NCBI GenBank assembly: GCA_019694975.1
Contig: JAIBAY010000009.1
Span: 62,001 to 126,000, forward strand
Length of the DNA stretch: 64,000 nucleotides
Direction of reading: 5' to 3'
From: Chitinophagales bacterium
GTDB lineage: Bacteria; Bacteroidota; Bacteroidia; Chitinophagales; UBA10324
The notes under the pieces were generated by a model, which worked only from the letters and a program-made list of their open reading frames with translations, had not been told where the DNA came from and searched no databases. The translations under genes and the position numbers were made by a program. Position 1 is the first letter of the stretch. Each line of letters begins with the position of its first letter. Positions 19,259-34,760 of this stretch are shown here, piece after piece.

Positions 19259-21478
19259 ATGCAGTTAAATTTTCTTATTGCTTCATTCCTGTTTTCCTGT
19301 ATTACCGCGTACGGGCAATATGCGATAGACCAGAGTATTACAGTGAAGGATCCGGCAGGTAATGCCATGCAATATCCGTGGGCGGGCGGTTTCAACAATG
19401 CTCAGTTTTCAACCGTTGACCTGAACAATGACGGCATCAATGACCTTTTTGTTTTCGATCGTACGGGAAACACCATCTACACTTTCATCAATCATGGAAC
19501 ACCTAACACCATAAATTTCAGCTACAACCCTGAATACAAAGTGCATTTCCCTGCGCTGGAAAACTGGGCGCTGCTGCTGGATTACAATTGCGATGGCATT
19601 GCGGATATTTTCACCCATACGCATAACCCTGCCACAGGCATACGTGTTTTCAACGGATCATATGATGCAAATAATGTGATTCAGTTTCAGCTGGCAGACG
19701 ACCTTTTGGAATACCCTTTTAACTCATTCCAGGTAAACCTGTTTGTCAGCGCCGTGGATATACCCGCCATCGTGGATGTAAATCATGATGGTGATGTCGA
19801 TATTCTCACCTTTCAGCAAAACGGCGGCTATGCTATTTATTATGAAAACAGGTCGCAGGAGAACGGACATGGCTGCAGCGATTTAGACTATGAGCCGGTT
19901 GATCAGTGCTGGGGAGATTTTTTTGAAAGTGGCTTTGTGCGGGCTGATTCGCTAAATGTCCCCTGCCCGTTTATGACGGGTGGTGAACAGCAAAAGGATG
20001 ACATTCGGGAGCTTCGGCACACCGGTTCCACTTTGCTGGCATTTGATAACGATGGTGACAATGATGTGGAATTGATTACCGGCGATATCTCCTTCTCGAA
20101 TATCGTTTACCTGCACAACGGAGGTACACCAGCTGATGCCAACATCAACAGCCTTGACACGCTGTTTCCATCCTATAACATCAGTGCTGATGTATATACT
20201 TTCCCTGCTGCATTCTATACCGATGTGAATAATGATGGATTAAGGGACCTGTTAGTGACACCGAATAATCAGCAGGGTACCGAAAATTATAACTGTGCCT
20301 GGTATTATCAGAATAAAGGAAACAGTACTACTGCTGAGTTTGATTTCCAGGCAAAAAATTTTATGGTATCAGACATGATTGATGTAGGTGAGGGAGCCTG
20401 CCCTGTTTTTTTTGATGCTGATAATGACGGGCTGAAAGATATTATTGTGGGCAACTATGGTTATTTCGACCTGAGCGCTCCGGGCATTTACGACGGGCAA
20501 CTGGCTTACTATCGAAACACGGGCACAGCCACAGCACCTGCCTTTCAGTTGATTACGGTTAATTATGCAGATGTTCTCTCACTGGCCGTGAAGTCTGTCT
20601 GTCCTACCTTTGGCGACCTGGATGGCGACGGAGATGCCGATATGATTACGGGAAGAGATGATGGCACCTTATTGTATTTCAGGAATATCGCAGCATCCGG
20701 TACAGCGGCAGATTTTGTTTTTATGGCGCAGAATTACGCAGGCATTGACGTGGGCAATTTCAGTACACCTCAGCTCGTGGATGTCAATCATGATGGGTTG
20801 CCTGACCTCTTGATTGGGGAACGGGATGGCAACCTGAACTATTACCGGAATACCGGCACTGCAGCAAATCCTGTTTTCGCAACCGGCGATAATTTTTTCG
20901 GTGAAGTGGATGTCCGTCAGCCCGGATACACGACAGGATACAGTGCACCATTTCTTGTGCAGCTTTCACCCGGCGATCCTTATACCTTGTTTGTTGGCTG
21001 TGAACGGGGATTCATTTTTCAATATGGAAATATTGATAATAACCTGGATGGAGTTTTTACGAAGATGGATTCAACGTATGCAGATATTTACCAGGGACTC
21101 CGTTCCACTGTTTCAGGCGCTGATGCGGATGATGATGGAAAAATCGAGCTGCTGGTGGGTAATTACCGAGGTGGCGTAACATATTATAACCAGGCACCAG
21201 AGGTTGCAGTGCCATTTGCGCCGGTGAATGTTGTCTTGCAACTTTTCCCCAATCCTGCAGCGCAGTCTGTTAGTCTTATTGTGCCTCCGGCGCTTAATCG
21301 TGCGGGATTTAACCTAACGCTGGTGAATAACCTGGGGGAATCAGTGCTGACACGCCACGTTGAAAATGCAGGAAGGTCAGTTTCACTGGATGTTGCAGGA
21401 TTGCCGCCCGGAGTTTATTTTGCCCGGATCAGTGCGGATAAAAACAACTTTGTGGGTAAACTTCTGATCAGTCACTGA
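19259..21478 (+). CDS. Secreted FG-GAP/VCBS repeat protein with T9SS type A sorting domain
   Basis: 739 residues. Signal peptide MQLNFLIASFLFSCITAYGQ. At least nine calcium-binding-type loops follow, such as DLNNDGINDLFVFD, DVNHDGDVDILTF, DVNNDGLRDLLV, DADNDGLKDIIVG, DLDGDGDADMITG and DVNHDGLPDLLIG, spaced as in an integrin-alpha-like FG-GAP propeller. The last ~80 residues ('LFPNPAAQSVSL' ... 'GLPPGVYFARIS...KLLIS') are a T9SS type A C-terminal domain, so the protein is expected on the cell surface or released. A Cys-containing loop (HGCSDLDYEPVDQCW) sits between early blades. Ligand unknown. Confidence 0.88.
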   Translation: MQLNFLIASFLFSCITAYGQYAIDQSITVKDPAGNAMQYPWAGGFNNAQFSTVDLNNDGINDLFVFDRTGNTIYTFINHGTPNTINFSYNPEYKVHFPALENWALLLDYNCDGIADIFTHTHNPATGIRVFNGSYDANNVIQFQLADDLLEYPFNSFQVNLFVSAVDIPAIVDVNHDGDVDILTFQQNGGYAIYYENRSQENGHGCSDLDYEPVDQCWGDFFESGFVRADSLNVPCPFMTGGEQQKDDIRELRHTGSTLLAFDNDGDNDVELITGDISFSNIVYLHNGGTPADANINSLDTLFPSYNISADVYTFPAAFYTDVNNDGLRDLLVTPNNQQGTENYNCAWYYQNKGNSTTAEFDFQAKNFMVSDMIDVGEGACPVFFDADNDGLKDIIVGNYGYFDLSAPGIYDGQLAYYRNTGTATAPAFQLITVNYADVLSLAVKSVCPTFGDLDGDGDADMITGRDDGTLLYFRNIAASGTAADFVFMAQNYAGIDVGNFSTPQLVDVNHDGLPDLLIGERDGNLNYYRNTGTAANPVFATGDNFFGEVDVRQPGYTTGYSAPFLVQLSPGDPYTLFVGCERGFIFQYGNIDNNLDGVFTKMDSTYADIYQGLRSTVSGADADDDGKIELLVGNYRGGVTYYNQAPEVAVPFAPVNVVLQLFPNPAAQSVSLIVPPALNRAGFNLTLVNNLGESVLTRHVENAGRSVSLDVAGLPPGVYFARISADKNNFVGKLLISH

Positions 21479-21523
21479 TAACTCCGCAAAGATTCGCTAA
21501 CTTGGCGACGTCCAATTGAGCAG

Positions 21524-24133
21524 ATGCACCGATTTTTACGAGCCACCCCTTTGATGTATCTCTTAGCTACGGCAGTGTTGTCGTTGTTGCCGTATTTTTC
21601 CTATTCATCGCATATCATCGGCGGCGAACTTTCTTATGCATGCAATGGCAACGATAATTACCAGGTTACACTGAAAGTATACCGTGATTGTTACAACGGG
21701 CAGGCGCCGTACGATAATCCAACTTATATTTTTATATATGACAATACCACTAATCTGCTTGTTACCTCATTATCCATAACCTTTCCGGGCGCAGATGAAT
21801 TACCGAACAATACCGGTAATCCCTGCCTGATTGTTCCGCCTAACATTTGTGTGGAAGAAGCCATTTTTACCAAGCAGGTGCACCTGCCGCCTACTGTTGG
21901 AGGATACAGGATGATCTATCAGCGGTGCTGCCGCAACTCAACGATCGTAAACATCGTGGATCCGGCTAATACCGGGGCAACGTATGAAGCTACTATCCCC
22001 GGGTCGGCACTGGCCGACTGCAACAGCAGTCCTTACTTCGTGAATTTTCCGCCCACCATTATTTGCATCAATACACCATTTGTATTTGATCATTCAGCCA
22101 CTGATCCTGACGGTGATTCCCTTGTTTATGAATTATGCTATCCCTATGACGGTGCCACTTCATTTAATCCGCAGCCAACGCCTGGCAGCCCGCCCATAAA
22201 CTACAACAACGTCAATTTTATTGCTCCGTATTCTTACGATAATCCGATGGGCGGAGCTCCGCCGATGGCTATTGATCCGGCATCAGGTGAACTTACCGTA
22301 ACACCTACGGCAACCGGACAGTATGTAGTGGGGGTGTGTGTGAGTGAATACCGAAACGGGAATTTGCTGTCCATTCATCGGCGCGATTTTCAATTCAATG
22401 TAACCAACTGCAATAATGCCTCCGCATCTATCAATGGAGGCAGCAATACAGTGAACAGCCCGGCGCTCTTTAATTCATGCGACGGCTTCACCTTTTATTT
22501 TCCGAATAACAGCAATAATGCAACATCATATCATTGGGATTTTGGGGTTCCCGGCCTTACCAATGATACTTCCAATCTTGAAGTGCCGGTATATACTTTT
22601 CCTGATACCGGAATATATACTGTTACCTTAATTGCCAATCCGGGCTCTTCCTGTGGTGATACGGCGTACGGGATTGTATATGTTTATCCTGTACTCGACG
22701 GACAGTTTTTATTTCCCAACGGTTGTGTAATTGATTCGCTGCAGTTTACGGACCTTTCTACCAGCGGTGTTGGAAATATCAATTACTGGTTCTGGAATTT
22801 TGGCAGCCTTGGCAGTTCGTTTGATCAAAACCCGCTCTTTGCATTTGATACTTTAGGCACCTATTATGTGCAACTGGTGGTTGGCACAGACCTGGGCTGC
22901 CTGGATACAACGGTGGGCTTCATTACCATTCACGAAAAGCCGGAAGCTATGGCCTATCCTGATACGATCATCTGCTCGCTTGATACTATTCAGCTCATTG
23001 GTTCTGGTATAGGAAATTATAAATGGGATCCTGCGTACGGATTGAATAGTGACACAGTGCAGACACCACTGGCAAGCCCTGATGAGGAAACGCTCTATCT
23101 GCTCACTGTTACCAATCAGTGGGGATGCGTGGACACTGCCAGTGTGCAGGTTAATGTTTATGATTCTGTAATTGCTTTTGCCGGAAATGACACTACGATT
23201 TGTCCCGGCGACATGGTACAACTGCATGGCACCGGCGGTGTGTATTTCAATTGGTCACCGTCAGCAGGGCTTTCAGCTGATGATATACCGGATCCGGTGG
23301 CACAGCCGGGCGCTTCGGTCACCTATGTGATGACAACCTTCATTGGTTCCTGTATCGATACTGATGCAATCCAGATACTGGTGAAACCTGATCCCGAAAT
23401 TGCAGCAGGTGCTGATGCGACGATTTGTATTGGCGACACAGCTGTATTAACAGCATGCTGTGGCACAAGCTATGCCTGGAGCCCCGTGGTTGCATTAGGT
23501 GATCCGAATGCAGACACTACTTATGCCAGCCCGGCCATTACCACTATTTATCATCTGCAGGCATCGGATGCGAACAGCTGCCCTGTTACGGTTTACGATT
23601 CAGTGACAGTTTTTGTGATTGCGCCTGCCCCGTTATCCGTTACACCGGACACCACCATTTACCTGGGAACAACAGCAACTTTACATGCAGACGGTGCTGA
23701 TACTTACAGCTGGACGCCAACCGACTATCTGAGTGATCCACTTATTGCCAACCCTGTTGCTTCTCCGACAGCATCCACTGAATACACAGTTGAAGCCATC
23801 ACGGCTGAAGGCTGTCCGTTATCAGCATCACTTAAAATTACAGTGATAGATGATCCGCTTGTTGTATTTCCCAATGCTTTCACACCAAACAGTGATGGGC
23901 TGAATGATGCATTCCTTCCAGTGGTGCTCGGTATGTTTGAATTAGAAAGTTTTAAAGTGTTCAACCGCTGGGGTGAAATGGTGTTTGCCGCCACGGATAT
24001 CAGCACAGGATGGGACGGCACCTATCAGGGTAAAGAAGAAGCTATCGGTACGTATGTTTATGCACTTTCTGGAAAATCACTGTCAACCGGCAAGACATAC
24101 TTCATAAAAGGAAATGTTGTATTATTACGTTGA
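21524..24133 (+). CDS. Large T9SS type B cargo protein with PKD/Ig-like modules, copy 1
   Basis: 869 residues with a signal peptide. The mature start 'SHIIGGELSYACNGND' and the following Cys-rich N-terminal domain (RCCRNSTI, 'DHSATDPDGDSLVYELC') are a recurrent Bacteroidota N-module. A PKD domain follows ('SYHWDFGVPG', 'YWFWNFGSLG'), then Ig-like repeats with 'ATICIGDTAVLT'-type openings. The end 'VFPNAFTPNSDGLNDAFLP' ... 'FNRWGEMVF' ... 'WDGTYQG' ... 'GTYVYALSG' is the gliding-motility-associated (CHU_C, T9SS type B) sorting domain. It is 45 bp after the FG-GAP gene and 29 bp before its paralogue. Probably a surface adhesin; type B substrates include filament-forming proteins such as SprB. 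Confidence 0.88.
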   Translation: MHRFLRATPLMYLLATAVLSLLPYFSYSSHIIGGELSYACNGNDNYQVTLKVYRDCYNGQAPYDNPTYIFIYDNTTNLLVTSLSITFPGADELPNNTGNPCLIVPPNICVEEAIFTKQVHLPPTVGGYRMIYQRCCRNSTIVNIVDPANTGATYEATIPGSALADCNSSPYFVNFPPTIICINTPFVFDHSATDPDGDSLVYELCYPYDGATSFNPQPTPGSPPINYNNVNFIAPYSYDNPMGGAPPMAIDPASGELTVTPTATGQYVVGVCVSEYRNGNLLSIHRRDFQFNVTNCNNASASINGGSNTVNSPALFNSCDGFTFYFPNNSNNATSYHWDFGVPGLTNDTSNLEVPVYTFPDTGIYTVTLIANPGSSCGDTAYGIVYVYPVLDGQFLFPNGCVIDSLQFTDLSTSGVGNINYWFWNFGSLGSSFDQNPLFAFDTLGTYYVQLVVGTDLGCLDTTVGFITIHEKPEAMAYPDTIICSLDTIQLIGSGIGNYKWDPAYGLNSDTVQTPLASPDEETLYLLTVTNQWGCVDTASVQVNVYDSVIAFAGNDTTICPGDMVQLHGTGGVYFNWSPSAGLSADDIPDPVAQPGASVTYVMTTFIGSCIDTDAIQILVKPDPEIAAGADATICIGDTAVLTACCGTSYAWSPVVALGDPNADTTYASPAITTIYHLQASDANSCPVTVYDSVTVFVIAPAPLSVTPDTTIYLGTTATLHADGADTYSWTPTDYLSDPLIANPVASPTASTEYTVEAITAEGCPLSASLKITVIDDPLVVFPNAFTPNSDGLNDAFLPVVLGMFELESFKVFNRWGEMVFAATDISTGWDGTYQGKEEAIGTYVYALSGKSLSTGKTYFIKGNVVLLR

Positions 24134-24162
24134 CTAAATGAGTTGAAAAAAACGAATTTCAC

Positions 24163-26787
24163 ATGAAAAAATGTTTACGCTTTTTCCTATGTATAGCTAT
24201 TCTCGGCCTTCAACCGGTCATTTCAAAAGCATCTCATATCGTAGGGGGCGAAATGATTTATGAATGCCTTGGAAATAATGAATACCTCATCACGCTTAAG
24301 GTGTACCGCGACTGCTTTAACGGTACTGCCGCTTATGATAATCCGACCAACGTCTTCATCTTCGATGCTAACGGAAACATAGTTGCCACGCTGCCTATCC
24401 CGTTTCCGGGATCAGATACGCTTCCTAACAATTCCGGTAATCCATGTCTCGTGGTGCCTCCGGGCATCTGCGTGGAAGAGGCAATCTTTCAATATAACGT
24501 GTTTCTCGATCCGTCACCGGGCGGTTATACAATGATTTATCAGCGCTGCTGCCGTAATTATTCCATCGATAATATTCTGAGTCCTGATAACACGGGTGCC
24601 ACTTATCTCGGTTACATACCTGACCCTGACCTTGCCGAATGTAACAGCAGTCCTTATTTCAATAATTTTCCGCCACCGCTGATCTGTCTTGCTGAGCCAT
24701 TGGTTTTTGATCATTCCGCCACTGATCCGGATGGTGATTCACTGGTGTATTCTATTTGTGACCCATACCTGGGAGCAAGTTCATTGAATCCATATCCAAA
24801 TCCTCCCGGTCCGCCACCATATAGTTTTGTGACTTTTGTTGCCCCTTACTCTTCATCTAATCCAATGGGCGGCTCTCCTTCTCTGACGATTAACCCTGCC
24901 ACAGGGCAACTGACGGTTACGCCAACTGCCACCGGACAGTTTGTAGTGGGTATTTGCGTTTCTGAATACAGGAACGGACAGTTTCTGGATGAGCATAAGC
25001 GCGATTTTCAATTTAATGTGGCGCAATGTATCGGCCCGCAGGCTTCCATTGACGGCGGAAGCAATACCATCGATAATCCGGCTGTATTCAATTCCTGCCA
25101 GTCATACACTTTTACTTTCCCCAATAATTCTTCCAATGCTACTAACTACTTCTGGGATTTCGGAGTTTCAGGCTCATCAACCGATACCAGTTCACAAGAG
25201 AATCCCACTTTTACTTTTCCGGATACCGGTCTTTATCACATCATACTTTATGTGAATCCGGGAAGTACCTGTGCCGATACTGCTTATGGTGATGTGTACG
25301 TATATCCGTTCTTCACGGCTGCCATGTCGGCGCCTGACGGATGTGTGGGACAGCCGGTGCAGTTTGGTGATGTCACCACTTCAAATTATACAGCTGTCAA
25401 TAGCTGGCACTGGGATTTTGGCGATGGCGATACATCTAACATAAAGAACCCGTCTAATATTTACGATGCACCGGGAAGTTATACGGTAACACTGATTGCC
25501 GGTAATGAAGCCGGTTGTATCGATACTATTGCTGAAGTAATAAACATTTTTCCCAGCCCTACCATAAGTGCCCTGCCGGATGACACGATCATCTGTAAAC
25601 TGGATCAGATTCAGATGAATGCAGTGGCTACAGGTGCAAACAATTTCAACTGGGAGCCCAACTATAACCTGAGCAGTACGTCTGTTTCCAATCCATTTGC
25701 AGGTCCTGATGTTACGGTAACTTATACGGTGTCTGTTTCCAACAATTTTGGTTGCGTGGCCATGGACAGTGTTCATATTGAAGTATATGATACAGTGATT
25801 GCCAAAGCCGGCAGCGACACCACTATTTGTCCCGGCGGCTCTGTACAGTTACATGGTACGGGCGGAATCAATTTTCAATGGTCACCTCCCAATGGCCTGA
25901 GTTCTACCACCATTGCGGATCCAATTGCTTCGCCGGCATCTACCACCAGCTATGTTTTTTATACTTCGGTTGGATCCTGTTCAGCAAAAGACACCGTGAC
26001 GGTATTTGTGAAGCCGTTTCCAAATATTGTTGCCGGGCCTGATGTGAGCATTTGCCAGGGGCAGAGCGTGGAGATTTCAGCATCAGGAGGGACCTCTTAC
26101 TCATGGCAACCTGCAGGAACCCTTGATAATCCCAATATCGCGAATCCGGTTGCGTCGCCTTTGGTTACAACTACTTATACAGTTTCTGCAACCAACGTAA
26201 ATGATTGTCCTTTCGTTGGACAAGACAGCCTTACCGTTAGCATTATTCCCATTCCGCCAATTTTCATCAGTCCGGATACCACCATTATTCTCGGTACATA
26301 CACAACACTTTCCATTACCGGTGGCGCGTCCTATATATGGGTCCCATCCGATGGCCTTGACAATCCAACCAGTGCGACACCAGTTGCATCACCGGATCAG
26401 ACTACTACATACATTGTCTACATTACAACAGCCGATGGTTGTCCTGCGATAGACAGTGTAACCATTACGGTAAATCCCAATCCGCTTGTCGAATTCCCCA
26501 CTGCGTTTTCGCCGAATGGAGATACGAAGAATAACTACTTCAGGCCATTAATATTGGGTCTTGCTCACCTTGATGAATTCAGGATATTTAATCGATGGGG
26601 AGAAGAGGTGTTTGCGATCAGTAATGTAAATGTCATTGGTGGACCATTACCAGATAACCTAAGCTGGGACGGCACCTATAAAGGTGAGCCGCAGCCGGTT
26701 GGTGTGTATGTCTATTACCTTAAAGGGATAGCTTCCGCAACAGGACTTACGATTGCCAAGCATGGTAACCTTACACTCGTGAGGTAG
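24163..26787 (+). CDS. Large T9SS type B cargo protein with PKD/Ig-like modules, copy 2
   Basis: 874 residues, colinear along its whole length with the gene just upstream: the same 'SHIVGGEMIYECLGNNEYL' N-module, 'QRCCRNYSIDN', 'DHSATDPDGDSLVYSIC', PKD ('WHWDFGDGDTSNI'), Ig-like modules with 'TTICPGGSVQLHGTGG', and a type B sorting domain ('EFPTAFSPNGDTKNNYF' ... 'FNRWGEEVF' ... 'WDGTYKG' ... 'GVYVYYLKG'). The pair is therefore a tandem duplication, but the DNA has diverged enough to be old. A strong terminator follows the stop, so the FG-GAP gene and this pair look like one transcription unit. Confidence 0.88.
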   Translation: MKKCLRFFLCIAILGLQPVISKASHIVGGEMIYECLGNNEYLITLKVYRDCFNGTAAYDNPTNVFIFDANGNIVATLPIPFPGSDTLPNNSGNPCLVVPPGICVEEAIFQYNVFLDPSPGGYTMIYQRCCRNYSIDNILSPDNTGATYLGYIPDPDLAECNSSPYFNNFPPPLICLAEPLVFDHSATDPDGDSLVYSICDPYLGASSLNPYPNPPGPPPYSFVTFVAPYSSSNPMGGSPSLTINPATGQLTVTPTATGQFVVGICVSEYRNGQFLDEHKRDFQFNVAQCIGPQASIDGGSNTIDNPAVFNSCQSYTFTFPNNSSNATNYFWDFGVSGSSTDTSSQENPTFTFPDTGLYHIILYVNPGSTCADTAYGDVYVYPFFTAAMSAPDGCVGQPVQFGDVTTSNYTAVNSWHWDFGDGDTSNIKNPSNIYDAPGSYTVTLIAGNEAGCIDTIAEVINIFPSPTISALPDDTIICKLDQIQMNAVATGANNFNWEPNYNLSSTSVSNPFAGPDVTVTYTVSVSNNFGCVAMDSVHIEVYDTVIAKAGSDTTICPGGSVQLHGTGGINFQWSPPNGLSSTTIADPIASPASTTSYVFYTSVGSCSAKDTVTVFVKPFPNIVAGPDVSICQGQSVEISASGGTSYSWQPAGTLDNPNIANPVASPLVTTTYTVSATNVNDCPFVGQDSLTVSIIPIPPIFISPDTTIILGTYTTLSITGGASYIWVPSDGLDNPTSATPVASPDQTTTYIVYITTADGCPAIDSVTITVNPNPLVEFPTAFSPNGDTKNNYFRPLILGLAHLDEFRIFNRWGEEVFAISNVNVIGGPLPDNLSWDGTYKGEPQPVGVYVYYLKGIASATGLTIAKHGNLTLVR

Positions 26788-27152: not shown

Positions 27153-30020
27153 TTATCGTTGCACAAGCAACTTTGCCAGGTACCAATTTCCGATTGCCTG
27201 CAACTCAAACAGATAAAGCCCTTGTGCAAAGCCTGACAGATCGATGGAGAAATCAGTGCTTTCCCGGTCGGCTATCCATTCCTCCGACCAGATCACCTGG
27301 TGAAGCGGTGTTAGCAGGTTTACTTTGAGTTTTTGCGGTGCCGCACCGGTGATCTTTAATAAAACATGATCACTTGCCGGATTCGGATGCAACGCTATTT
27401 GAAGATCCCCCTCACCGCAGATGATGCCTTCATTGGCGGCTCTTGCAAACCAGGGCAAAATGTTGCTGAATGCGTTAATCCTGTAGCAGGCATTCGGTTC
27501 AGATGAAGCATTAGCGGATGCCACTTTTAACAGGTAGGTGCCTTTGGAAGCATTGTTTAAAATGATTGATTCGTCGGTGGTTCCGGTATTGGCAGAAGAG
27601 TTGATCAACTGCCCGTTTTTTTTGTAGAGGAAAAGGTCATAGTCTGCCAGCAGATCCGATAAGTCAAATTTAAGGTTGGTAGTGATTACTGTTTTAAACT
27701 GAAACCAGTCCTGATCAGTGGACGATGCAATGGCACCGGTGTAGCCATAGAATCCAAGATCGGCAGTAACATTGATTTTCGCGGCAGTGAGATAGCTGTC
27801 GTTCGGTTCATATTTATCTTTGCAGGCATCACTTACATTCAGTTTGATTAATTGCACTTCATCGCCGCCATTGGTGCCGGATTGATAAACGCCGGATGAG
27901 TTGAAGAAAGCAGTATCCGTAACAACGGCCATATAGAGTGATTTGCTTTTTTTGTCCCACTCAATATCAAATACATTTTGCTCGCCGCCGGCCCCCACAA
28001 TATAGTTCCAGGCCAATGCTCCCTCAGCGGTGTATTTAGCAACAAATCCATCCTGCAAGAATAATCCTTCATCTGCCATAAATATATTGCCGTTCACATC
28101 TTCGTCACTTCCGGTTTGACCTGCCAGGTAGATGAAGTTATTTTCTTTGTCAATCGCTATACCTCTTGCCCGATCCAGGCTGGGCCCGCCGTAGTAGGTT
28201 CCCCATGCGAGCTGCCCGTCGGGCGTAAATTTGGCGAGGTAACCATCGGCGGATGGGTATCCATCATTATTGTATCCTTCATTCCATTCTGGATCCGCAG
28301 TGCCGGGTGTTCCTATTCCGGTCTGACTGATTGTCCAGCCGCCGATATATGCATTTCCATCCGCATCGGTCTGCAGCCCTCTGCCGTGTTCATCTTCTTC
28401 ACCGCCGAAGTAGCTGCACCAGTACAGATGGCCGGTTGTATCCCATTTCGCGATAAATGCGTCCTGCGGACCACCGCCATAAACGCTTTGATGAACACCG
28501 GGCGTTGCAAATTGCGAGGTACTTTCACAAGTACCCTGGATATAGAAATCACCGTTGCTCAAAAGAGCGATATCGTGTGCGCGGTCTTGCCCGGGCCCAC
28601 TCAGATAAGAACACCATCTGAGTGTACCGTTATTGGTGAAGGCACCTGCCATTACATCGCCTTCGGTTTGGTTGCCATTGTATATTTCCTGGTAAGCGCC
28701 TGCGGTGGCAATGTTATTTGCACTGCAGGTGTATCCGTCAAAATATATATTGCCGGCGGCATCGCAAACGATAGCACTGATCTGATCACCATATCCTGTA
28801 CCTCCGAAATAGGTTGCCCACTGTCGAATGCCATTGATGTCAAACTTCACCAGGAATGCATCCATGGCTCCACCGAACAGCGGCTGATGTGAGCCGGCTG
28901 TAGCAATACCATTATTGCTGAAGGTATTGCCTCCTACAAAAACATTCTGCCAATCATCGGCAGCGATAGCATGGCAACCATCGCGGTCATTGGAACCATA
29001 GTACGTGGCCCAGGCCAGCAGGCCGCTTGGTTTAAACTTGGCAGCAAAGCCATCCACAACTCCTCCACCGAAGATTACCTGGTGTGCACCGGTGCTTGCA
29101 ATATAGAGCGTGCTCATCGTATTGCCGGCCAGGCAGGCATTTCCTTTCAGGTCTACCGATAACTCTCCTTCATATAAATCTTCTGCAGCATTTCCGCCAT
29201 AATAAGTGAACCAGGTGATGTTGGGATCGATGACGACAGCACGGCCATGCAGGCCGGTAGATTTGTAGCCGATTTTGTTTTTTGAAATCGTGTACCGGAC
29301 ATCAACCGGTGAAAGATCATCGGCCGCATATGCACTGATCCTGCCTTCATTAATCATTCCGTTCACTGCTTTGATACCGACACTGCCGTCTGCCAGTAAA
29401 TTCATTTCGGGAACGCCATCATACTGCAACCGGATAACAGTGGGGTCAGCGCCGGGCTGGAGATGCCATTCATATTTTAAAAATGCATGTTGGTTATCCG
29501 GTGCGGAAAACACGAGGTCAATGCCCGGATATACATTTTTATAGGTAATGGTGCGGAAACTGCGTACATGGGTAACGCCGCTGACTCCGGTGCCTGCAGT
29601 ATAAAAATGCAGCAGGGCGCTATCCTGAAGAGATGCTGATAATTCAGCATTGGCAGCATTGAGGAATGTAATATCAATTCTATTTGAAATCACATAGATG
29701 CCTTTTTTGCTGCAGCCGGTTTTTCGGTCAATATCATATTCAGGACAGGTCGCATTAGTAACATTGCATTCCTTGCCCATATACTGGAAAAGTTCATAGC
29801 TGAATCCGTCATTTCTCAGCTGCAGATTAAAACTGCCGCTGGCATAAATATACCGGACAGCTGTATTCGGCCGATAAAACTGATCGGTAATCTGCCCTTT
29901 GTTTTCTACAAATCCCGTTGTGACACTATATGCTGTTGATGCCTGATCAACGGGCTGTGTAAAAGCAAAGAGATGGATTAATAGCAGGAGCGCAATGCAA
30001 GGCATGAATAGCTTTTTCAT
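27153..30020 (-). CDS. Secreted SBBP-repeat beta-propeller protein with T9SS type A sorting domain
   Basis: 955 residues. Signal peptide MKKLFMPCIALLLLIHLFAF. The N-module 'GFVENKGQITDQFYRPN' is the DUF7948-type start that precedes SBBP repeats. About seven SBBP (seven-bladed propeller) repeats follow, each with a 'W.TYYGG...D....I..D..GN.Y..G.T' pattern (e.g. 'WATYFGGTGYGDQISAIVCD', 'WGTYYGGPSLDRARGIAID'). A pre-peptidase-like 'DLGFYGYTGAIASSTDQDWF' module comes next, then a type A sorting domain starting 'LHPNPASDHVLLKI' and ending 'LLVQR'. Surface or secreted protein of unknown ligand. It converges with the tRNA gene. Confidence 0.88.
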   Translation of the reverse strand: MKKLFMPCIALLLLIHLFAFTQPVDQASTAYSVTTGFVENKGQITDQFYRPNTAVRYIYASGSFNLQLRNDGFSYELFQYMGKECNVTNATCPEYDIDRKTGCSKKGIYVISNRIDITFLNAANAELSASLQDSALLHFYTAGTGVSGVTHVRSFRTITYKNVYPGIDLVFSAPDNQHAFLKYEWHLQPGADPTVIRLQYDGVPEMNLLADGSVGIKAVNGMINEGRISAYAADDLSPVDVRYTISKNKIGYKSTGLHGRAVVIDPNITWFTYYGGNAAEDLYEGELSVDLKGNACLAGNTMSTLYIASTGAHQVIFGGGVVDGFAAKFKPSGLLAWATYYGSNDRDGCHAIAADDWQNVFVGGNTFSNNGIATAGSHQPLFGGAMDAFLVKFDINGIRQWATYFGGTGYGDQISAIVCDAAGNIYFDGYTCSANNIATAGAYQEIYNGNQTEGDVMAGAFTNNGTLRWCSYLSGPGQDRAHDIALLSNGDFYIQGTCESTSQFATPGVHQSVYGGGPQDAFIAKWDTTGHLYWCSYFGGEEDEHGRGLQTDADGNAYIGGWTISQTGIGTPGTADPEWNEGYNNDGYPSADGYLAKFTPDGQLAWGTYYGGPSLDRARGIAIDKENNFIYLAGQTGSDEDVNGNIFMADEGLFLQDGFVAKYTAEGALAWNYIVGAGGEQNVFDIEWDKKSKSLYMAVVTDTAFFNSSGVYQSGTNGGDEVQLIKLNVSDACKDKYEPNDSYLTAAKINVTADLGFYGYTGAIASSTDQDWFQFKTVITTNLKFDLSDLLADYDLFLYKKNGQLINSSANTGTTDESIILNNASKGTYLLKVASANASSEPNACYRINAFSNILPWFARAANEGIICGEGDLQIALHPNPASDHVLLKITGAAPQKLKVNLLTPLHQVIWSEEWIADRESTDFSIDLSGFAQGLYLFELQAIGNWYLAKLLVQR

Positions 30021-31331: not shown

Positions 31332-34300
31332 TTATTGCACCATCAGTTTTTTAGTGATGTGATCTTTTCCGGAACTGAAAGTTATAAAGTAGACTCCGCG
31401 ACCGAAAGGAGACAAGTCAACATCAAAACTTTCCGCCGTCTGATTTAGGAATTTTTCAGTGTATACTATTTTACCTAACAGATCGCGAATCTCGAGGTAC
31501 CCGTCTGTTCGCTCCGGCAGGCTGATATCAATGTAACAGCGCCCGTTCGTGGGATTCGGATAAATATCAACCATGGTCTTATCAGTAAAGATACAATCAC
31601 CGGTGCCTGTGGTAAGTCCTACCGTGAACTGCTGATATACCTGTCCGCCGAAATCACTGTTGAAGTTCTTGATGATGGCGCCATTGGTCGTATTCCTGAA
31701 GCGAACATATCCGCCTCCCTGGTAAGGATTGGCCCACCAGGTAAGGCCGTCTTCTCCGCTGTCGGTCAGCTCAAATTTGTAACAACCTGCAGTCAGTGAT
31801 ACTGTATCACGGTAGATGATGTTCGGATCGAGGCCGCTTTTATCAATCAAAATATTACCGGATTCATCCTTCAGTGTATAACTGTTTTCATCAGCATAGT
31901 TGTTGGTCTTAAATTCAATGTAGAATTCACCCGGCATCACAACAGGATAAACAAAGTGGGAAGTGGCAGTATTGTTATGATCATATTCATCACTGCCGCC
32001 GTTTGGTTTAGCGATGGTTACCACAAATTCTGTGGCATTCGGTACCCATTCAAAAGATCCGAGCGTGATAGTAGCTGATTCGGTAAACTTCAGATTACCC
32101 GTCCAGTTGTAGACGGAAGGTGTCGCACCATTCAATCCATAGCTGATGGTCAATGAGGTGAGGGTAGTGGCGCCACCATTGCTGATTTTAATGACAGGAT
32201 TGGTACAAACCGGATTCATGCGTCCCCACATCTGATCAGTGCCAGGAGCAAGTATATCATCTACGGATGCATCCAGCGAAAAATTCGGTGCACTGTAAGT
32301 GACCAACTGATCTTCTATCTGGTAATAGTCCCAGCCATACGTGCTGGTATATGCCTGCACATCATGATCAAGTGTGACAGCGCTGCCGGGCGTAAGGAAG
32401 GGGGAAAGTTCCCAGTTATAGGTCCATACTTCCGCGCCCGGACACCAATTCGCACGGTCATAAACCCACGTGCCGCCTTGTGGATACACGGGATTGAGAT
32501 CACAGTTATTCCTCCATACAAGTTTTGAAAACTGTTGCACATTGTTCACTTTGTAATAATGTGTCTTGGCACAAAATTCCGCGCAGTTTTGCGGAGAATC
32601 CATGCCATGCCCGGTGATGCGCGACTTCCATCGTGCATTAGCTGCATCAGCAGGAATATCGATGGTGAGCGGTTGCAGGTGATTTTCTATCGGGTCGCTG
32701 CTCTGTCCGTAGTTGAAGCCGCCGTTCCACAGGTTTTGAACGCTTAACACATCGCGTGGCGGCGTTCCTTCTATCATCAAAAACTTTACATCCAGCAATT
32801 CCTGCCAGTTGCCCGCATTCAGGTGAACACTGTCTGCAAGCAACGGCCTGTAATCACTCACATCAAATGTCCAGGTGAAACCATCACCGAGGCTCAGGTT
32901 AATACCATAGGGCGTAATGTATCGGGCCAGTTCATACCGGATTACCTGTGGGTACTTATGGTACCAGTCGTAGTAATCAAGCAGCAGCGTGTAGTCCGGT
33001 GCAACAAGTGAAGAATCGACAACTTCACCCTGTGCATTAAAGACATAGTGATAGTAAGGAAGCCACACATTCTCGATACTGGTAGCGTCGCCGGGATTAT
33101 TGACGGAGTCGTAATAAGTTATCAGTTGCACAGGTGTCGTGACAGCAGAGTCAACCACGAAGACGGAATCAATATATTGATCGTACACACCTCTTTCAAA
33201 AGTTATGTTTGGTCGCAGCGAAGTGGGGTTGAAGGAAATGATCTCATCTGCATCCCGGAATGGATTGTCAACACCAGCAGCATCAGCAGGAGCATGATTG
33301 CCAGGTGCGGCATCGGAAAATGTCTGATAGTTGCCGTCGTCAAACTGATAATATAGAGCCAGGTTGTTGTAGTAAGGATGCGAAGCATCTATTTTCTTGT
33401 ACATATATTCCTGGATGATGGCAGCCGGCAGTTCTTGGTTGAAGACAGCGAATTCATCTATTTTCCCTTCATATGTTTTTGAACCATTCCAGTTTCCTTT
33501 ACCAATCTTGAAATATTTAATACCCTTCATGCTTTTAGTTTTGTTGCTTCCGGTGTACCACTGCACACCATTCAGATAGATCCGCATCCAGCCTGTTGCT
33601 ACATTTTTGGTAAATGCCCAGTAATTCCATTGGCCTTTTATCTGCGGTGCCGTAGCAACTTTGTGAATACGGTCATAACCGGTTCCCGAGAAGCCGGCAT
33701 CCCAGTAAACGTGACTGTCGGACCAGGGAAGGTGCGAGTTCAACAACCTGTTTTGCAGACTGTCAACAGCTTCAAATGCAGTACCGTCCATAGGTTGCAG
33801 TTCAGGTGTTCCATAGCACCAGAATGAAATGGTTACAAAAGAGTCGATGGCTGCAACCTGATCATTAACCGGCACATCGACGTAGCCAAAGCTATGAAAG
33901 GCAGCAACACGATCACTGCCTGAAGAGGTGAGGCCTGCAGTAAAGCCGGCTGTTGCAGCATTCACTACATTATCGGTGGCCGGTGCATTGTTCTCGTATG
34001 AAATGTCGATGATGATATTGGAAGTGCCGTCCCAGTTAAATGGCGTGGTGAATTGCAAGCTGTTTGAACCCGTGAGTTGAAATGCGGTATTCTTTGCATA
34101 TACGGTCGTAAAGCCGTCGTTGGCAAAGTTTGTTTGGGTCAATGAATCAAGTGTAGCCGGCTTCATCCTGATGGTCAGATTATGTACTTCACCACCTGAA
34201 GAAGTAATATAAAACTGAATGCCGGTTATGCTTCCGGCCGTCATGCCCGCGGCAGCGATTTCACCTGCCTTCCACAGATATTGAGAACGTGAAACGGGAT

Positions 34301-34760
34301 GAGAGGCTCCGAAAGGTGCGGTTGCTGCGACGGTTCCTGTACCTAACTGATAAGTGCTTAATGATGATGTGCTCGTATTCACCATAAAATATTGCCAGGC
34401 AGGCAGATATTTCCATGATGGTGTTTGCATATAGGAAAAGCTGTCAGGACTTGTACCGTTCACAGTATAGGTTGGCTGATGAATCTGCGTGGAGTCCAGG
34501 AAGCCGGTATTCTTGTAGAGGTAGGTGTAAGTCAGGTAGTCCCATTCCCCGCAGGCCGGACTTTGTGCCGGATTGCATTTCAGTGTATACTTCATGAGAA
34601 TTTTCTCAAATCTCACCGTATCAGATGGAAATACAAACCATGCATCCTGCGGTGAACCAAATGTGAAGGCCTGCACAACAATCGTATCGCCCGGACCTGC
34701 AAACGCTTTCATGGTAACGGCAGTAACAATAATGGAAATCACGAGCAGCAACTTTTTCAT
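31332..34760 (-). CDS. Secreted peptide-N-glycosidase F-like protein with internal LamG domain and T9SS type A sorting domain
   Basis: 1,142 residues with signal peptide MKKLLLVISIIVTAVTMKAFA. Residues ~25-85 match the first part of PNGase F, including 'ACGEWDYLTYTYLYKN' (D74 corresponds to catalytic Asp60). A ~530-residue insertion follows; it includes a LamG-like jelly roll at ~308-455 ('GQWNYWAFTKN...WMRIYLNG', 'YEGKIDEFAVFNQ'). PNGase F similarity resumes at 'ARYITPYGI' (~612) and continues through 'ITGHG...NCAEFCAKTHYY' (E728 corresponds to Glu206), 'NNCDLNP' and 'YDRANWCPG'. The C-terminus has a CARDB-like module and a type A sorting domain (IYPNPTNG...). PNGase F removes N-glycans from glycoproteins. 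Two key acids are present; the equivalent of Glu118 is not obvious, so activity is not assured. Confidence 0.82.
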   Translation of the reverse strand: MKKLLLVISIIVTAVTMKAFAGPGDTIVVQAFTFGSPQDAWFVFPSDTVRFEKILMKYTLKCNPAQSPACGEWDYLTYTYLYKNTGFLDSTQIHQPTYTVNGTSPDSFSYMQTPSWKYLPAWQYFMVNTSTSSLSTYQLGTGTVAATAPFGASHPVSRSQYLWKAGEIAAAGMTAGSITGIQFYITSSGGEVHNLTIRMKPATLDSLTQTNFANDGFTTVYAKNTAFQLTGSNSLQFTTPFNWDGTSNIIIDISYENNAPATDNVVNAATAGFTAGLTSSGSDRVAAFHSFGYVDVPVNDQVAAIDSFVTISFWCYGTPELQPMDGTAFEAVDSLQNRLLNSHLPWSDSHVYWDAGFSGTGYDRIHKVATAPQIKGQWNYWAFTKNVATGWMRIYLNGVQWYTGSNKTKSMKGIKYFKIGKGNWNGSKTYEGKIDEFAVFNQELPAAIIQEYMYKKIDASHPYYNNLALYYQFDDGNYQTFSDAAPGNHAPADAAGVDNPFRDADEIISFNPTSLRPNITFERGVYDQYIDSVFVVDSAVTTPVQLITYYDSVNNPGDATSIENVWLPYYHYVFNAQGEVVDSSLVAPDYTLLLDYYDWYHKYPQVIRYELARYITPYGINLSLGDGFTWTFDVSDYRPLLADSVHLNAGNWQELLDVKFLMIEGTPPRDVLSVQNLWNGGFNYGQSSDPIENHLQPLTIDIPADAANARWKSRITGHGMDSPQNCAEFCAKTHYYKVNNVQQFSKLVWRNNCDLNPVYPQGGTWVYDRANWCPGAEVWTYNWELSPFLTPGSAVTLDHDVQAYTSTYGWDYYQIEDQLVTYSAPNFSLDASVDDILAPGTDQMWGRMNPVCTNPVIKISNGGATTLTSLTISYGLNGATPSVYNWTGNLKFTESATITLGSFEWVPNATEFVVTIAKPNGGSDEYDHNNTATSHFVYPVVMPGEFYIEFKTNNYADENSYTLKDESGNILIDKSGLDPNIIYRDTVSLTAGCYKFELTDSGEDGLTWWANPYQGGGYVRFRNTTNGAIIKNFNSDFGGQVYQQFTVGLTTGTGDCIFTDKTMVDIYPNPTNGRCYIDISLPERTDGYLEIRDLLGKIVYTEKFLNQTAESFDVDLSPFGRGVYFITFSSGKDHITKKLMVQ

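What the first reader, a model, noticed from the sequence alone, without database searches (positions are those of the whole stretch)
31332..34760. PNGase F-like enzyme split by a ~530-residue insertion with a LamG domain
The first PNGase F segment (with the D60 counterpart) and the second (with the E206 counterpart and conserved Cys) are far apart in sequence, with a LamG-like lectin domain and another beta-domain inserted between. The layout suggests a substrate-targeting domain plugged into a loop of the catalytic fold. The E118 counterpart is not obvious.
Basis: partly seen in the sequence, partly recalled or inferred. Interest (0 to 1): 0.6.

Follow-up and report, generated by a model that had tools for sequence, protein, structure and literature searches.

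The report
PNGase F enzyme with nested lectin insertion
An enzyme predicted to strip sugar chains off proteins has a large two-domain block, including a lectin-like domain, built into the tip of one of its hairpins, and the same layout recurs in many environmental Bacteroidota.

Summary
Window 31332-34760 (-) encodes a 1142-aa secreted protein. Residues about 22-86 and 604-826 form one PNGase F fold: AlphaFold2 model with pLDDT 89.4; VIA-align Z 26.7 to PNGase F, 272 of 310 residues aligned across model 25-825. About 517 residues interrupt it at PNGase F's turn near residues 71-73. The insert is nested: a ~147-residue hairpin insert holds, at its own tip, a beta-sandwich module plus a LamG domain (fold of PAPP-A and pentraxins). 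Living relatives show all three states: no insert, small insert only, full insert. The full insert is conserved: 43 of 44 fetched relatives over 1000 aa have it at 491-533 residues. Catalytic D60 and E206 counterparts (D74, E728) are invariant in 71 of 71. E118 has no acidic counterpart: its hairpin is shortened, and glycine (G650) aligns there, as in type II PNGases, which accept core alpha-1,3-fucose (PMC9522356). Best reading: a T9SS-exported PNGase that releases N-glycans, perhaps fucosylated ones, with LamG as a binding arm. Catalysis is strongly inferred and targeting is plausible; both are untested. New variant of a known kind.

The parts
31332..34760 (-). whole ORF, 1142 aa, PNGase F-superfamily protein with nested insertion
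34698..34760 (-). N-terminal hydrophobic leader, residues 1-21 (signal peptide by eye; no predictor run)
   Evidence: helix 2-17 in the model
34503..34697 (-). PNGase F core, first part, residues 22-86; C62/C70 and W73-D74-Y75 (PNGase F W59-D60-R61)
34341..34502 (-). small insert, first arm, residues 87-140 (strands 76-96 and 116-139 extend the core hairpin)
33918..34340 (-). beta-sandwich module, residues 141-281, no Pfam family; a relative lies in a ~6500-codon open frame of the same genome
33231..33917 (-). LamG domain (Laminin_G_3; PAPP-A/pentraxin fold), residues 282-510
32952..33230 (-). small insert, second arm, residues 511-603 (strand 519-540 and the start of the returning strand 596-615)
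32283..32951 (-). PNGase F core, second part, residues 604-826; H718, E728, C753, R769, W772, C773
32766..32840 (-). shortened hairpin, residues 641-665, where PNGase F carries E118; A-G-N-W-Q-E motif, G650, Q653, E654
31611..32282 (-). two C-terminal beta-modules, residues 827-1050, no Pfam match in this protein
31335..31565 (-). T9SS C-terminal sorting domain (Por_Secre_tail), residues 1066-1142

Best explanation
A type IX-secreted peptide:N-glycosidase. Shown: two separated sequence segments build one double jelly-roll PNGase F core (predicted structure) with the catalytic Asp (D74) and Glu (E728) kept in all 71 relatives examined. Inferred from PNGase F: D74 and E728 cleave the GlcNAc-Asn linkage, releasing intact N-glycans from glycoproteins outside the cell. 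Shown: a ~147-residue hairpin insert (residues 87-140 and 511-603) grows from the turn at PNGase F residues 71-73, and at its own tip carries a beta-sandwich module and a LamG domain. Inferred: this arm binds glycan or glycoprotein surface and holds the enzyme on insoluble or multivalent substrate, as inserted CBMs do in Xyn10C and SusG. Shown: the E118-bearing hairpin is shortened and glycine aligns at that position. Inferred: the first two GlcNAc units are less hemmed in, so core alpha-1,3-fucosylated (plant, insect or algal type) glycans may be accepted as by type II PNGases. The natural substrate (algal, invertebrate or detrital glycoproteins) is a guess.
For: Assembled PNGase F fold, Z 26.7, rmsd 2.4, 272 of 310 residues. 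D74, W73, Y75, H718, E728, C753, R769, W772 and C773 invariant in 71 of 71; these fit the aromatic-Asp-aromatic/positive and His+Glu loops described for active PNGases in PMC12381499. Core more conserved (0.50-0.56) than the arms (0.32-0.34), with LamG in between (0.44). LamG in 37 of 37 insert-bearing members scanned. LamG also joined N-terminally in another PNGase F clade, 4 of 4 scanned. G650 aligns with E118 and with the type II glycine, and is G in 68 of 71. The genome has two GH92 and one GH20 to process released glycans, and no GH18 match. One relative without the insert (L093) fuses PNGase F to an alpha-L-fucosidase.
Against: No activity data. E118, reported essential in PNGase F (PMC9259526), has no acidic counterpart. 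The Glu said to replace it in type II PNGases was not located here; invariant E654 is only a candidate. The hhalign match to group 1-like PNGases leaves this hairpin ambiguous. No GH29 fucosidase match in this genome, which weakens a fucosylated-glycan diet. The gene is an orphan: none of five flanking genes is kept beside relatives in more than 4 of 79 loci. LamG ligand and placement are unknown; pTM is only 0.54.
Confidence: 0.6

Rival explanations
1. Active PNGase, but the inserted arm is a spacer or structural element (surface display, dimerisation or shielding of the core) rather than a substrate binder.
For: The insertion turn follows the strand that starts at D74, so it should lie away from the cleft; long strands 76-96, 116-139, 519-540 and 596-615 look like a stalk. 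The NBL domain of type II PNGase can be removed without effect on activity or specificity (PMC9522356). The beta-module recurs in a very long open frame of the same genome.
Against: LamG is clearly more conserved than the arms and the beta-module, with 13 invariant positions, and LamG is recruited separately at the N-terminus in another PNGase F clade.
Confidence: 0.25
2. A pseudoenzyme or lectin: the PNGase F fold is kept for glycan binding but no longer cleaves.
For: No acidic residue at the E118 position, and the hairpin that carries it is shortened.
Against: Catalytic Asp and Glu and the main contact residues are invariant in 71 of 71. Type II PNGases lack E118 and are active, and Bacteroides group 1 enzymes carry Asp there (PMC9522356).
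Confidence: 0.1
3. A chimaera from misassembly or gene fusion rather than a real architecture.
For: None found; it was considered because the two halves are far apart.
Against: 43 of 44 independently assembled relatives over 1000 aa share the gap of 491-533; 70 of 74 loci checked from another collection have an intact ORF over the whole match.
Confidence: 0.01

Closest known systems
PNGase F (E. meningoseptica type I; 1PNG/1PNF)
   Same: Double jelly-roll fold, Z 26.7; D60, E206 and W59 counterparts kept, and by recalled numbering R248 and W251; cysteines kept
   Different: ~517-residue nested insert at the turn near 71-73; E118 not kept, its hairpin shortened; R61 is Tyr, W191 is His; C-terminal modules and T9SS tail
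PNGase F-II type (4R4X; 7ZGN)
   Same: Fold Z about 22; glycine at the E118 position by hhalign to type II-like relatives
   Different: No NBL domain seen; insert instead; hairpin shorter; compensating Glu not identified
Zebrafish acid PNGase Ngly2 (9LWG)
   Same: Closest fold after the PNGase F entries, Z 24.2; Asp and Glu essential there by mutation (PMC12753239 passages)
   Different: Accessory domains precede an uninterrupted PNGase domain
PNGases of PMC12381499 (PNGaseL, PNGaseDo and others)
   Same: Some T9SS-exported, with accessory beta-modules; His + Glu and aromatic-Asp-aromatic loops
   Different: Modules described as N- or C-terminal to the catalytic domain; the word 'insertion' is absent from the text
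Xyn10C/Pm25 GH10 xylanases with inserted CBM4s, and SusG with inserted CBM58 (PMC7848910)
   Same: Binding modules inserted into a loop of the catalytic fold in Bacteroidota (passages)
   Different: Unrelated catalytic folds and different inserted modules; no nesting described in the passages read

Membership tests
PNGase F superfamily (PF09112/PF09113) | C-terminal jelly roll, N-glycanase_C | tested here: met
   67.1 bits against cut-off 25; 37 of 37 relatives
PNGase F superfamily (PF09112/PF09113) | N-terminal jelly roll | tested here: met
   By fold: 1png Z 26.7 over model 25-825, and by profile 23-84 to 4-71. The Pfam model itself stays below its cut-off (13.9 against 22.4) because of the interruption
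PNGase F superfamily (PF09112/PF09113) | Catalytic Asp60 and Glu206 counterparts | tested here: met
   D74 and E728 in 71 of 71
PNGase F superfamily (PF09112/PF09113) | Amidase activity on Asn-linked glycans | not testable with these tools
   No assay
Type I PNGase F | Acidic residue (Glu or Asp) at position 118 | tested here: not met
   Gly in 68 of 71, Tyr in 2, His in 1 at the aligned column 650
Type II PNGase F | Glycine at position 118 | tested here: inconclusive
   G650 aligns with the type II-like Gly, but the hairpin is about 5 residues shorter, so structural equivalence is unsure
Type II PNGase F | N-terminal bowl-like domain | tested here: not met
   The core starts at residue 22-25, right after the leader. 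Not universal in type II: absent from B. coprophilus (PMC9522356)
LamG (Laminin_G_3) | Profile and fold match | tested here: met
   48.2 bits against 27.6; PAPP-A 7ufg_B Z 22.9, 201 residues, rmsd 2.2
LamG (Laminin_G_3) | Glycan or protein ligand binding | not testable with these tools
   No ligand data
T9SS cargo | Type A C-terminal sorting domain | tested here: met
   52.8 bits against 27, residues 1066-1141; TIGR04183 50 bits against 23

The most novel reading that the evidence does not exclude
A distinct environmental PNGase class, neither type I nor type II, in which loss of the E118 hairpin tip (replaced by an A-G-N-x-Q-E turn with a nearly invariant Gln-Glu pair) and a lectin arm grown in two nested steps from a core turn together give a surface-tethered enzyme with new specificity, such as core alpha-1,3-fucosylated or algal/invertebrate glycoproteins in intact, insoluble form.
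Probability: 0.3. Interest if true: 0.65.

Novelty: new variant of a known kind. Interest (0 to 1): 0.5.

Why it matters
PNGases are standard glycobiology tools, and few act on core alpha-1,3-fucosylated glycans of folded proteins. A widespread class with its own shortened recognition hairpin and a built-in lectin arm is a ready source of enzymes with new specificity. It is also a clear natural series (no insert, small insert, small insert plus two domains) of how a catalytic fold takes in whole domains at hairpin tips without losing its active site. Ecologically, it suggests that N-glycan release is common among free-living aquatic Bacteroidota.

Tried and rejected
Misassembly or chimaera: rejected, since relatives share the architecture. 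Gene-neighbour clue: none; five flanking genes tested with tblastn against 79 loci, at most 4 of 79 hit. Naming the beta-module by fold: Foldseek gave no match at E below 0.001 (best 0.014); VIA gave best Z 8.3, which may be a common arrangement only; no Pfam match and no significant sequence match in solved structures (best E 0.017). Single clean origin of the full insert: the tree needs 2 changes (a 12-row clade with the small insert only joins two insert-bearing rows), but one clade is not rejected, p-AU 0.289 and 0.373. So either one gain, or one gain with one loss, is possible, and direction is not shown.

Placing LamG relative to the active site was not possible: no coordinates are returned, and pTM is 0.54. 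The literature searches gave no paper that, by the listing or the passages I read, describes a LamG inserted in a PNGase F fold; only open-licence PMC papers are searched. The phylogeny of 1897 sequences in PMC12381499 may contain such proteins; I did not see its figure. Rows dropped: L039 (cut locus) from the trees; 15 distant rows from the careful trees; five contig-cut loci, and four with broken frames within it.

Papers: PMC12381499 sections 14 and 17 and passages; PMC9522356 section 5 and passages; PMC12753239, PMC8812541, PMC9259526 and PMC7848910 passages; the rest search listings only. The 1995 mutagenesis paper of Kuhn and colleagues was not read; its content is recalled or cited through PMC9259526. 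PNGase F disulfide pairing and R248/W251 numbering are recalled.

Full report
What is there. The minus-strand ORF at 31332-34760 encodes 1142 residues. Pfam matches N-glycanase_C (696-788), Laminin_G_3 (292-449) and the T9SS tail (1066-1141) above their cut-offs, while N-glycanase_N stays below its own (13.9 against 22.4 bits). phmmer against solved structures gives PNGase F first (E 1.2e-15), then zebrafish Ngly2. A profile of 71 relatives (A2) matches PNGase F at E 8.4e-34 and aligns residues 23-84 to 4-71 and 605-820 to 73-301. The interruption therefore falls at PNGase F's turn around residues 71-73.

Does it fold as one enzyme? The AlphaFold2 model from A2 has mean pLDDT 89.4 and pTM 0.54. 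VIA-align places 1png first: Z 26.7, rmsd 2.4, 272 of 310 residues, 27 percent identity, model range 25-825; Ngly2 follows at Z 24.2 and PNGF-II at 22.4. Residues 282-510 match PAPP-A's LamG domain (Z 22.9), a B. ovatus putative carbohydrate-binding protein (Z 22.6) and pentraxins. Residues 132-284 folded alone give pLDDT 94.2 and only weak beta-sandwich matches (best Z 8.3; no Foldseek match at E below 0.001). The same module occurs in a ~6500-codon open frame of this genome, profile E 3.7e-26.

Nested insertion. The distance from the D60 motif to the second core segment sorts relatives. Of 44 retrieved proteins over 1000 aa, 43 have 491-533 residues and one (L093) has 22. Four shorter ones have 95-104 (L074, L075, L077, L078), and most of the others in which the motif pattern was found have 9-23. 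A profile of the arms alone (87-140 plus 516-602) finds those four at E 2e-11 to 4e-18; of the 15 rows without an insert that I asked about, none scores better than 0.24. The arms are therefore a separate, smaller insert, and the beta-module plus LamG sit inside it. In the family of the L074 genome, 12 of 12 full-length loci fetched carry the small insert (E at most 3.2e-12) without the nested domains (best E 0.43). The model's long strands 76-96, 116-139, 519-540 and 596-615 fit such nested hairpins. On a tree of 74 rows the full-insert label needs 2 changes (shuffled mean 23.5), and a single clade is not rejected (p-AU 0.373). One gain, or one gain and one loss, are both possible.

How common. 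PF09113 matches occur in 148 of 298 genomes of the order and 61 of 395 of the phylum; these counts include all PNGase F forms. Of 74 loci checked, 70 have an intact frame over the match. All 37 members of A1 match both LamG and N-glycanase_C, and 33 of 37 the T9SS tail.

Active site. In A2, C62, C70, W73, D74, Y75, H718, E728, C753, R769, W772 and C773 are invariant in 71 of 71; C726 in 66 and C730 in 61. PMC12381499 describes an aromatic-Asp-positive/aromatic motif and a His plus Glu loop as the shared contacts, with PNGase F as the exception that has Trp for His; W73-D74-Y75, H718 and E728 fit. The E118 hairpin runs 26 residues between fixed points in 35 of 44 insert-bearing rows, 28-29 in the other 9, and 30-35 in 15 of 15 rows without an insert; PNGase F has 31 (counted on the alignment). 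The L074 clade shares the shortening in 8 of 12 rows, but L075, L077 and L078 do not, so the small insert alone did not cause it. The profile aligns E118 with G650, Gly in 68 of 71. hhalign to 13 type II-like proteins pairs A-G-N-W with I-G-N-Y. Against 5 group 1-like proteins this stretch is gapped and undecided. [quoted passage not shown] That gives a direct prediction, weakened by the shorter hairpin and by not finding the Glu said to compensate in type II. Q653 (70 of 71) and E654 (71 of 71) are candidates for a replacement role.

Function and setting. The genome carries two GH92 and one GH20, and no GH18 or GH29 match. It can plausibly trim released high-mannose glycans and would rely on PNGases to free them; the missing GH29 speaks against a heavily fucosylated diet. 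A second PNGase F protein in the genome (L124) has LamG at its N-terminus and an uninterrupted core; three relatives with that layout also have N-terminal LamG (4 of 4 scanned). LamG thus partners PNGase F in two topologies, which favours a binding role. Conservation supports this in part: core 0.50-0.56, LamG 0.44, beta-module 0.34, arms 0.32-0.34. Flanking genes are not conserved.

Judgement. Bacteroidota already offer the same idea in other enzymes (two CBM4s in GH10 xylanases and CBM58 in SusG, PMC7848910 passages), so this is a new variant of a known kind rather than a new kind.

Noticed in passing
L093:707-4048 (-), relative from genome G269: A PNGase F domain without the insert is fused to an alpha-L-fucosidase (PF01120, 301 bits, residues 657-1017) in one 1114-aa protein: a two-step N-glycan enzyme in one chain, in a family suspected of acting on fucosylated glycans.
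   Followed up: partly
L124:1192-3828 (+), G000:C5: The window's own genome has a second PNGase F-like protein, with LamG at the N-terminus and motif CDPWDR.
   Followed up: partly
G000:C7 near 91385-91702 (L003): An open frame of about 6500 codons in the same genome contains a copy of the beta-module seen in the insert.
   Followed up: no
L226, L229, L230, L231: Four small-insert proteins have a lengthened (36-residue) instead of shortened hairpin at the E118 place, so this recognition loop is unusually changeable.
   Followed up: no
window 27153-30020 (-): 955-aa secreted SBBP beta-propeller protein with an N-terminal DUF7948 domain, a PPC domain and T9SS-type matches.
   Followed up: no
window 19259-26787 (+): Three successive T9SS proteins: an FG-GAP repeat protein and two PKD/CHU_C proteins.
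   Followed up: no
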